Source: Homarus americanus (lineage: Eukaryota > Arthropoda > Malacostraca > Decapoda > Nephropidae). Taken from it: 64,000 nt of DNA. The position numbers and the translations under genes were made by a program. The notes below the pieces were generated by a model. That model saw only the letters and a program-made list of their open reading frames with translations. It was not told the DNA's origin and did no database searches. Where the stretch lies: assembly GCF_018991925.1 (NCBI RefSeq), contig NW_024737042.1, forward strand, positions 16,530,102-16,594,101. The letters are read 5' to 3'. Positions 30,422 through 32,398 of the stretch are shown here, one piece after another (position 1 is the stretch's first letter; each line of letters opens with the position of its first letter).

Positions 30422-32398
30422 TCACCACAATTTTATCTTTGTGCCAGGAACAGGGAGTTCTTTGAGTGTGAGGCCTGAGGGGGATGTCTTGTATGCTGCC
30501 AGGTCTTCGTCTTTCTCTTGAGCCGCGGCTAGCTGCCCATAATCAATGGGTGGAGATGAGGGAAGAATGTTGGATATACAACGAGAGAGGGCGTCGGCGA
30601 TCTCGTTGTGGCTGCCTTTAATGTGTTGGACGTCGCTGGAGAACTCCGAGATGTAAGCCAAGTGGCGCAGGACACGAGGTGTATGTGACTGGGAAGCTGA
30701 AGCGAAGGCGTGGACGAGGGGCTTGTGATCAGTGAAGATGGTGAACTGACGGGCCTCGAGGAAGTGCTGGAAATGTTTGACAGCCAGGTATATGGCCAGG
30801 AGTTCTCGATCAAAGGCGCTGTACTTGAGGTGTGGTGGTTGAAGTCGTTGTGAGAAAAAAGCAACGGGCATGAGAATTCCGTTGATCTCCTGCTGTAAGA
30901 CGGCGCCCACTGCAGTAGAAGAAGCGTCTGTTGTGAGAGTGGTCCGGGCGTTAGGTGAGAGGTGGGCCAGGAGGGTGAGGCGTGTAATGTGCTGTTTGAT
31001 AGTGGTGAATGCCGTAGTAGCCTCTTGAGTCCACACGAGAGACTTGTGAGACTTCTTTGGGCGTCCCTTGAGAAGGTCGTGTAGGGGGGCTAGGACGGTG
31101 GCAGCTTTGTCAATGAAGCGGTGGTAGTAGTTCACTAAACCCAGGAATTCTCGGAGTTTCTTCGCCGTTTCAGGTTTGGGGAACTCCCTAATCGCAGTTA
31201 TCTTCTGTGGTAGGGGTTGTATGCCACTGGGCGAGACTCTGTGACCGAGGAAATCGATGGCCGAGGTTCCAAAGACGCACTTAGCAGGATGAACTTTCAT
31301 GTTGTTGTTCTGCAGGCGTTGGAGAAGGAGTTGTAGGTGGTGGCGGTGCTCGGCAGGCGTCGAAGATGCGACGAGGATGTCGTCAATGTAGACGGTGACA
31401 AAATCGAGGTCGCGAAGCATATGGTCCATGTACCTCTGGAAAGTCTGTGCTGCATTGCGTAAGCCAAAACTCATGAAAGTGTACTCGAAGAGTCCAAACG
31501 GAGTGGTGATGGCTGTCTTCTGGGTATCTGCAGGTGCTACTGGGATCTGGTGGAAGGCACGCTCCAAGTCGATCTTCGAGAAGATAGTCTTGCCATGAAG
31601 TTTGTGGTGAAAGTCCTGGACATGCGGAATAGGGTACCTGTCAGGTTTGGTGACGAGATTCAGGGCTCTGTAGTCGCCACACACCCTCCACTCGCCGGGT
31701 GTTTGCTTAGGAACCATGTGAAGAGGCGATGCCCAGGGACTCCTTGAAGGGCGAATGATGCCGTCTTGCAGTAGTTTGTTGAATTCTACTTTGGCTGTGT
31801 TCAGGAGCTCAGGGCGCAGGCGGCGAGGGCGTGAAAAGACTGGTGGTCCTTTGGTTTCGATGTGGTGGAAAATTCCCGATGTAGGTGGTGGGGGTAGGGA
31901 GACTCGGGGTGAGAAAAGCTCCTTGAATTCGTCGAGCAGGGAGGAGAACTCGTTGGAAGGCGCAAGACAGGTGATAGTGTCGGTGTGTCTGGCACGAGAA
32001 CCCTGGATCTTGCGTGCTGTAGGCTCATGGATGAGGCATAGATGACTTGGTTTGACGCCGAGCTTGTGGAAGGTGAGGAAGTCGAAACCAAGGATGGGTT
32101 GAGACACGTCTGCTATCACGAATAACCAACGCAGAGTCTTGGACAGACCGAGGTCTAAGGCGAGGGTGCGTACGCCGCAGAAGGCGATGGAGGTACCGTT
32201 GGCAGCAAACAGGTCATAAGAGGGTTGCTTTGACTTGTCTTGTAGTGAGGGAGGGATGAGGCTGACCAATGAACCTGTCTCGATGAGGAACTTCTTGCCG
32301 GAGGTGCGGTCGGTGACGCGCAGTAATGAGACGCCTGAAGGGACGGAGGCTGAGGCGTCTACCAGCCTCCTGTGTTGCCGTTTCCCGAATAGGTGCAA
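30422..32398 (-). pseudogene. pol: pol, part 1: protease, reverse transcriptase, RNase H
   Basis: Positions below count from an arbitrary in-frame TTG at 32398; natural entry is by frameshift. The protease motif, at residues 38-43, reads LIETGS: the catalytic aspartate is replaced by glutamate (codon GAG, 32281-32279). Reverse transcriptase spans about 195-400, with KIDLERAFHQI (about 275-285) and YIDD (337-340) intact. RNase H (about 480-605) keeps TDASS, FTDHK and IADALSR. The frame ends at a TGA (30424-30422) where pol should run on into integrase in the same frame, so this is a nonsense mutation. The domain order is that of ordinary Ty3/gypsy elements. Confidence 0.92.
32330..32386 (-). 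promoter_or_regulatory. Predicted -1 ribosomal frameshift signal: slippery site plus H-type pseudoknot
   Basis: The minus strand has GGGAAAC (32386-32380) in exact X_XXY_YYZ phase with the gag codons (GGA at 32385-32383, AAC at 32382-32380). A 9-nt spacer (32379-32371) follows. Stem 1 is GGAGGCTG (32370-32363) pairing with CAGCCTCC (32352-32345), 8 bp. Stem 2 is GACGCCT (32359-32353) pairing with AGGCGTC (32336-32330), 7 bp. Loops are 3, 0 and 8 nt, which is canonical H-type geometry. The gag stop codon sits at the start of the stem 2 5' arm. A -1 shift leads directly into the pol frame. Confidence 0.88.

What the first reader, a model, noticed from the sequence alone, without database searches (positions are those of the whole stretch)
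32330..32398. Textbook -1 frameshift signal with H-type pseudoknot between gag and pol of a CsRn1-like gypsy element
On the minus strand GGGAAAC lies in exact X_XXY_YYZ phase with the gag codons. Nine bases later come an 8-bp stem and a 7-bp second stem whose 5' arm lies in the loop of the first (loops 3, 0 and 8 nt). The gag stop falls inside the structure and pol continues in -1. Heptamer, phase, spacing and two perfect stems occurring together by chance is very unlikely. GGGAAAC with a pseudoknot is known from retroviruses. Such a compact, complete signal in a Ty3/gypsy element of this group is worth reporting.
Basis: partly seen in the sequence, partly recalled or inferred. Interest (0 to 1): 0.85.

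Follow-up and report, generated by a model that had tools for sequence, protein, structure and literature searches.

The report
Pseudoknot frameshift signal in a retrotransposon
A decayed jumping element in an animal genome still carries the RNA signal that makes ribosomes slip back one base to read its enzyme gene, and some distant relatives carry the same signal in the same place built from different letters.

Summary
On the minus strand GGGAAAC (32386-32380) lies in X_XXY_YYZ phase with gag. The gag TAG lies at the loop 1/stem 2 border and pol continues in -1. The element is CsRn1-like. This copy is dead: pol has two in-frame stops and the likely gag start is out of frame.

Four divergent relatives, found as probable contaminant contigs in bacterial assemblies, all have pol in -1. 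Three keep an in-phase GGGAAA[C/A]. Two have a strong pseudoknot at the homologous position, built from different bases, with the gag stop at the same place; the other two do not. Pol proteins show GK (GGG AAA) at this spot in 61 of 86 informative sequences.

-1 overlap in this clade is published, and GGGAAAC plus pseudoknot is known from PEG10. I found no paper on a pseudoknot in the CsRn1 clade. So: a new member of a known kind, with evidence for a conserved but not universal module. Copies in the window's own genome could not be searched: the tool did not complete.

The parts
32380..32386 (-). slippery heptamer G_GGA_AAC in gag phase
32371..32379 (-). 9-nt spacer
32363..32370 (-). stem 1, 5' arm (8 bp)
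32361..32362 (-). loop 1 (2 nt)
32359..32361 (-). gag stop codon TAG, at the loop 1 / stem 2 border
32353..32360 (-). stem 2, 5' arm (8 bp)
32345..32352 (-). stem 1, 3' arm
32337..32344 (-). loop 3 (8 nt)
32329..32336 (-). stem 2, 3' arm
32359..33165 (-). gag-frame ORF (268 aa) with the CX2HX9CX3C motif near its end; the likely start ATG at 33139 lies in another frame, so gag is broken near its beginning
   Evidence: (DUF7041, 24.2 bits, below its cut-off of 28)
30422..32404 (-). pol-frame ORF piece 1 (-1 relative to gag): protease region (motif by eye, reads ETG where relatives have DTG or DSG), RT, RNase H; ends at an in-frame stop
29456..30421 (-). pol-frame ORF piece 2: integrase (H2C2, rve); ends at an in-frame stop
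28868..29455 (-). pol-frame ORF piece 3, proline-rich 18-bp repeats, ends just before the 3' LTR
33174..33775 (-). 5' LTR, TGT...ACA
28303..28858 (-). 3' LTR, TGT...ACA; 532 of 542 ungapped columns identical to the 5' LTR (74 gap columns); flanks AGCG / AGTG (3 of 4 target-site bases)
33162..33171 (-). primer binding site TGGTGACCCC, tRNA-Trp type
   Evidence: motif from PMC2582038

Best explanation
This is a programmed -1 ribosomal frameshift signal between gag and pol of a CsRn1-clade Ty3/gypsy LTR retrotransposon. A ribosome decoding gag pauses with GGA and AAC in the P and A sites while an H-type pseudoknot 9 nt downstream resists unwinding. In a minority of passages both tRNAs re-pair one base back on GGG AAA, giving Gag-Pol. 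The others unwind stem 1 and stop at the TAG at the loop 1/stem 2 border, giving Gag. Shown: heptamer, phase, frames, pairing potential, position of the stop, and the same architecture in two divergent families. Inferred: folding in vivo, frameshifting itself, its efficiency and the Gag:Gag-Pol ratio. This particular copy can no longer make a full Pol, so the signal is a remnant of the family's active ancestors.
For: Heptamer, phase and stems; 0 of 20,000 shuffles for each of window, L004 and L001. Four other families have a CHCC Gag with pol in -1: L001/L005, L002, L003, L004; three of them carry GGGAAAA, GGGAAAC and GGGAAAC in phase (L001/L005, L002, L004). Knots in window, L004 and L001 lie at homologous codons: stem 2 5' arm begins at codon 9 and stem 1 3' arm at codon 12 in all three, the knot ends 51, 52 and 56 nt after the heptamer, and the gag TAG is in loop 1 or at the start of stem 2 in all three. 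Two-sided base changes in 6 of 8 stem 1 pairs and 5 or 6 of 7 stem 2 pairs, all still standard pairs. GK at the -1 reading of the heptamer in 61 of 86 informative Pol proteins, against 81 of 1,518 control windows; the next residue is R, L or P in all 61. GN, the gag-frame reading, follows the CHCC motif in 19 of 23 CHCC-bearing Gag proteins of the 71 found.
Against: No expression data. L002 keeps the heptamer and -1 pol but has no H-type knot under my settings and a gag-frame stop 213 nt downstream. L003 has pol in -1 but no canonical heptamer between the CHCC motif and the protease (T_GGA_AAT at the homologous place) and no notable knot there (450 of 5,000 shuffles as low). So neither heptamer nor knot is universal. 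CsRn1 and PwRn1 have one fused ORF and six Anopheles elements have two in-frame ORFs (PMC2582038). The Homarus Gag model P0001 ends in a peptide (RKQHRRD) that resembles the window's -1 frame, so that copy or gene model may differ at the junction. Only one copy of the window's own family was available. Three knot-bearing families are few for covariation, the knots were found by search before their pairs were counted, and the search settings were widened after I had seen the L004 pairing by eye. The energy model is crude.
Confidence: 0.9

Rival explanations
1. The heptamer is used, but the stimulator is only the stem 1 hairpin (8-9 bp); the stem 2 complementarity is incidental.
For: The nested fold gives a 9-bp hairpin at the right place. 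L002 keeps heptamer and -1 pol without an H-type knot.
Against: Stem 2 is a perfect 8 bp here and recurs as 7 and 8 pairs in L004 and L001 at homologous codons with two-sided changes. 0 of 20,000 shuffles reach the joint score.
Confidence: 0.07
2. Stems and frames are chance in a decayed GC-rich copy; Pol of this family was made in another way (fused ORF, reinitiation or readthrough) and the -1 relation is a decay indel.
For: The copy is decayed: two in-frame stops in pol and an out-of-frame gag start. Fused-ORF relatives exist (PMC2582038).
Against: Pol is in -1 in four other families and three of them keep the heptamer. GK stands at the position in 61 of 86 informative Pol proteins. Shuffle and positional controls.
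Confidence: 0.03
3. The inverted segments serve another RNA function, such as packaging, or reflect protein coding in pol, and only coincide with the slippery site.
For: The segment is coding in both frames up to the gag stop, and the -1 peptide between heptamer and protease has a loose consensus in relatives.
Against: Stems persist while the coded peptides differ, and spacing to the heptamer stays at 4-9 nt in the three knots.
Confidence: 0.03

Closest known systems
AgCR elements of Anopheles gambiae (CsRn1 clade), PMC2582038 (passages and section 6 read)
   Same: CHCC Gag, tRNA-Trp PBS, pol in -1 overlapping gag in nine elements
   Different: 'slippery' and 'pseudoknot' occur 0 times in that text; different host
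CsRn1 (Clonorchis) and PwRn1 (Paragonimus), PMC2582038
   Same: same clade and Gag motif
   Different: gag and pol fused in one frame, no frameshift needed; a Paragonimus westermani protein (P0088) still shows GKL at the site
PEG10 (mammals), PMC2800197 and PMC5009743 (passages of both read)
   Same: Ty3/gypsy-derived; GGGAAAC heptamer and a downstream pseudoknot; GKL in the -1 frame; spacer 5 nt
   Different: domesticated host gene of another gypsy lineage (lineage recalled); spacer differs; knot sequence not compared
Retroviral gag-pro frameshift signals such as SRV-1 (PMC5175198, search listing only; heptamer recalled)
   Same: slippery heptamer plus pseudoknot
   Different: retrovirus, gag-pro junction
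Ty3 of yeast, PMC5009743 (passages read)
   Same: Ty3/gypsy gag-pol frameshifting
   Different: described there as mechanistically distinct (from Ty1); +1 is recalled

Membership tests
CsRn1 clade of Ty3/gypsy | Gag CHCC motif CX2HX9CX3C | tested here: met
   CWYHQTFGRNARNCEPYC near the end of gag; motif definition from PMC2582038
CsRn1 clade of Ty3/gypsy | tRNA-Trp type PBS TGGTGA[G/C]CCCG[T/A] | tested here: met
   TGGTGACCCC two bases after the 5' LTR; first 10 bases agree, the 11th differs
CsRn1 clade of Ty3/gypsy | 4-bp target-site duplication, LTRs TGT...ACA or a slight variant | tested here: inconclusive
   LTRs TGT...ACA; flanks AGCG/AGTG agree in 3 of 4 bases
CsRn1 clade of Ty3/gypsy | Pol order PR-RT-RNaseH-IN | tested here: met
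   RVT_1, RT_RNaseH, then Integrase_H2C2 and rve; protease by motif only
CsRn1 clade of Ty3/gypsy | position in an RT/RH/IN tree | not tested
   no tree was built; the listed Pol relatives include trematode and arthropod proteins with the DUF7041 domain
-1 programmed frameshift signal with H-type pseudoknot | X_XXY_YYZ heptamer in zero-frame phase | tested here: met
-1 programmed frameshift signal with H-type pseudoknot | H-type pseudoknot a few nt downstream, beyond chance | tested here: met
-1 programmed frameshift signal with H-type pseudoknot | heptamer conserved in relatives | tested here: met
   in phase in 3 of 4 other families with CHCC Gag and -1 pol; GK in 61 of 86 informative Pol proteins
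-1 programmed frameshift signal with H-type pseudoknot | structure conserved with pair-preserving changes | tested here: inconclusive
   strong knot at the homologous place in 2 of 4 other families, with two-sided changes; absent in L002 and L003; no copies of the window's own family available
-1 programmed frameshift signal with H-type pseudoknot | measured frameshifting dependent on site and stems | not testable with these tools
   needs a reporter assay

The most novel reading that the evidence does not exclude
The CsRn1 clade carries an ancestral recoding module: GGGAAAC, an H-type pseudoknot at fixed codon positions ahead of the protease, and the gag stop placed at the loop 1/stem 2 border so that every non-shifting ribosome must unwind stem 1 and terminate inside the knot. 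It is kept by covariation across animal phyla, and replaced or lost in single lineages (L002, L003, fused-ORF CsRn1 and PwRn1). It would be an old, conserved frameshift stimulator of retrotransposons.
Probability: 0.45. Interest if true: 0.55.

Novelty: new member of a known kind. Interest (0 to 1): 0.42.

Why it matters
Animal LTR retrotransposons often have pol in -1, but their stimulators seem little described (my reading of the papers found). A family with a compact knot that recurs at the same codons in two divergent relatives gives a tractable natural series for asking how stem lengths, loops and the placement of the gag stop set the Gag:Gag-Pol ratio, and how such signals are lost when the two ORFs fuse.

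Tried and rejected
Pol piece and Pol profile A1 against viral contigs gave nothing, as did Gag profile A2. A Gag-motif DNA pattern in viral contigs gave four loci, L007-L010; none shows the CHCC or protease motif in six frames, and I dropped them. Of the six genome-contig loci, L006 was dropped because no CHCC or protease motif was found in it. L005 was not counted apart from L001: 99.1% identity over 902 nt and an identical junction. L003 I first set aside wrongly: my heptamer scan began too far downstream. A 7-bp stem with a weak second stem begins at its gag stop (15-16 of 5,000 shuffles as low at two offsets, but the best of 180 offsets scanned), which I do not count. Rfam gave no match at gathering scores. 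My first Gag regex was wrong by one residue and gave 0; corrected. The first LTR blastn printed no alignment; redone with MAFFT. The first knot search on relatives, with L2 of at most 2, missed the L004 knot; having seen it by eye I changed the settings (spacer 4-10, L1 1-7, L2 0-4, L3 up to 25) before the shuffles, for observed and shuffled sequences alike. A1 was made of sequences I chose among fragments showing GK, so its invariant GK is no evidence; one search is the count.

The same own-genome search (genome search, 'own') was sent 17 times and never answered. The main paper on LTR recoding signals (Gao et al. 2003) is not held; I know it only by recall and through PMC5009743.

Full report
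What is there. On the minus strand an LTR element runs from 33775 to 28303. Its LTRs are 33174-33775 and 28303-28858, TGT...ACA, identical at 532 of 542 ungapped columns with 74 gap columns; the flanking four bases agree in 3 of 4. TGGTGACCCC follows the 5' LTR after two bases. The gag-frame ORF (32359-33165) ends with CWYHQTFGRNARNCEPYC and 11 further residues; this is the CX2HX9CX3C motif that PMC2582038 gives for CsRn1-like elements. The -1 ORF begins at 32404 and holds RT and RNase H; integrase lies in the next piece of the same frame. The closest Gag found is a Homarus americanus protein, 55% identical over 88% of the query, the only hit of that search. A decapod host is therefore likely but not shown.

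The copy is dead. The pol frame is cut by in-frame stops at the ends of 30422-32404 and 29456-30421. The ATG at 33139, whose peptide resembles the start of the Homarus Gag, is not in the gag frame. The protease motif reads ETG where the aligned relatives have DTG. The finding concerns a signal inherited from active ancestors.

The signal. GGGAAAC occupies 32386-32380 with gag codons GGA AAC; read in -1 it is GGG AAA. After 9 nt comes an H-type pseudoknot of 8 and 8 bp with loops of 2, 0 and 8 nt. The gag TAG is at 32361-32359, 18 nt after the heptamer. Among 600 slippery-type heptamers of the window only this one is followed by a 6+6 bp Watson-Crick knot at 3-12 nt. 0 of 20,000 dinucleotide shuffles score as low, and within 30422-33165 only offsets 0 and +3 of 759 in-phase positions do. 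The nested fold alone is not unusual (z = -1.25).

Relatives at the DNA level. A profile of Pol fragments found six loci in bacterial genome assemblies, which I take for contaminating animal DNA (inference; two are in an Escarpia tubeworm endosymbiont assembly, and CsRn1-clade elements are reported from the tubeworm Lamellibrachia, PMC8220671, passages read). Five of the six have a CHCC Gag and a readable gag-pol junction, from four families: L001 with L005, L002, L003 and L004. In all four pol is in -1. Three have the heptamer in phase: GGGAAAA in L001/L005, GGGAAAC in L002 and L004. L003 does not: at the homologous place it reads T_GGA_AAT, and no canonical heptamer lies between its CHCC motif and protease.

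The knot in relatives. L004 and L001 have strong H-type knots (0 of 20,000 shuffles each). In L004: S1 10 bp, S2 7 bp, loops 4, 3 and 7, spacer 4. In L001: S1 12 bp, S2 8 bp, loops 1, 1 and 9, spacer 5. Counted in pol codons from the heptamer, stem 2 begins at codon 9 and the stem 1 3' arm at codon 12 in window, L004 and L001; the knots end 51, 52 and 56 nt after the heptamer; the gag TAG falls in loop 1 or at the first bases of stem 2 in all three. The stem letters differ: two-sided changes in 6 of 8 stem 1 pairs, and in 5 or 6 of 7 stem 2 pairs depending on the anchoring, all standard pairs. These pairs were counted after the knots had been found by search, so the count shows divergence of sequence under the same architecture; it is not an independent test. 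The exceptions are L002, with no H-type knot, a hairpin no better than shuffles (76 of 200 as good) and a gag-frame stop 213 nt on, and L003, whose best knot at the homologous site is ordinary (450 of 5,000 shuffles as low).

Relatives at the protein level. Of 521 Pol relatives the best 120 were listed. Three lack the protease motif I used and 31 are too short at the N-terminus. Of the remaining 86, 61 have GK 32-38 residues before the protease Asp, where GGG AAA is read in -1. Nine of the 25 without GK start only 28-32 residues before that Asp and may simply begin after the site. Control: 81 of 1,518 25-residue windows hold GK. The next residue is R (32), L (28) or P (1), all with codons that can begin with C, as GGGAAAC requires; R and L also have other codons, so this is consistent, not proof. 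Some of the rest read as other slippery sites (for example FKR in P0087), a lead only. In Gag proteins, 23 of 71 have the CHCC motif by regex, and 19 of these have GN, the gag-frame reading, within 15 residues after it; by eye most of the 23 resemble the L004 family.

Mechanism. The anatomy fits textbook tandem-slippage -1 frameshifting that sets a Gag to Gag-Pol ratio. With the stop at the loop 1/stem 2 border, a ribosome that does not shift must open stem 1 before it terminates. Whether this matters for efficiency is inference.

What is known. PMC2582038 (passages and section 6 read) reports that CsRn1 and PwRn1 have a single fused ORF, that nine AgCR elements have -1 overlap, and that six have two in-frame ORFs (its text says 14 elements were analysed). 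It does not mention a slippery site or pseudoknot (0 occurrences). PMC5009743 (passages read) reports from a 2003 survey that 28 of 51 animal retroelements have pol in -1, many with classical heptamers. PMC2800197 (passages read) gives GGGAAAC, a 5-nt spacer and a pseudoknot for PEG10. In ten searches I saw no paper on a pseudoknot in the CsRn1 clade, judging by listings and by passages of those opened. The library lacks most subscription papers; some searches listed 25 of 28, 15 of 39 and 10 of 1,047. So the kind is known, the member is new, and the recurrence of the knot in the clade looks undescribed as far as I could search.

Limits. The own-genome search was sent 17 times and never answered, so there is no alignment of copies of this family. 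Three knot-bearing families out of five examined, the window's included, are few. The knot energies come from a simple stacking sum of my own.

Noticed in passing
39978 to at least 46000 (-): A second LTR element. In the ORF 40979-43246 the integrase lies before the RT (rve 192-287, RVT_1 482-640), and the ORF upstream (43247-44281) matches the SCAN domain (E 1.7e-9): a Gmr1-like gypsy element by domain order (order as given for Gmr1 in PMC2582038).
   Followed up: partly
34240-39189 (+): A non-LTR element: ORF 35818-39189 (1123 aa) with endonuclease, RT and RNase H matches, and an upstream ORF with Cys-His knuckles by eye (34240-34983).
   Followed up: no
7405-8063, 9577-10277, 20842-21117: Very long dinucleotide arrays: (GT) about 330 copies at 100% match, (CT) about 353, (AT) about 138.
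   Followed up: no
10339-10564 and 62654-63995: Two GGTGGT-rich minisatellites with a similar 23-bp unit lie some 52 kb apart.
   Followed up: no
L001, L005 (NZ_QPMK01000035.1, NZ_QYYA01000011.1): Animal-type gypsy elements, 99.1% identical over 902 nt, sit in contigs of two different bacterial isolate assemblies: probably contamination from one eukaryotic source.
   Followed up: partly
L003:2532-2570: In this family the gag/pol overlap is only some 13 nt and has no canonical slippery heptamer; a perfect 7-bp stem begins at the gag stop. It may use another recoding site.
   Followed up: partly
P0087, P0075, P0115 N-termini: Pol proteins without GK show FKR or PKL at or near the same position, which would fit other slippery heptamers (UUUAAAC, CCCAAAC).
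   Followed up: no
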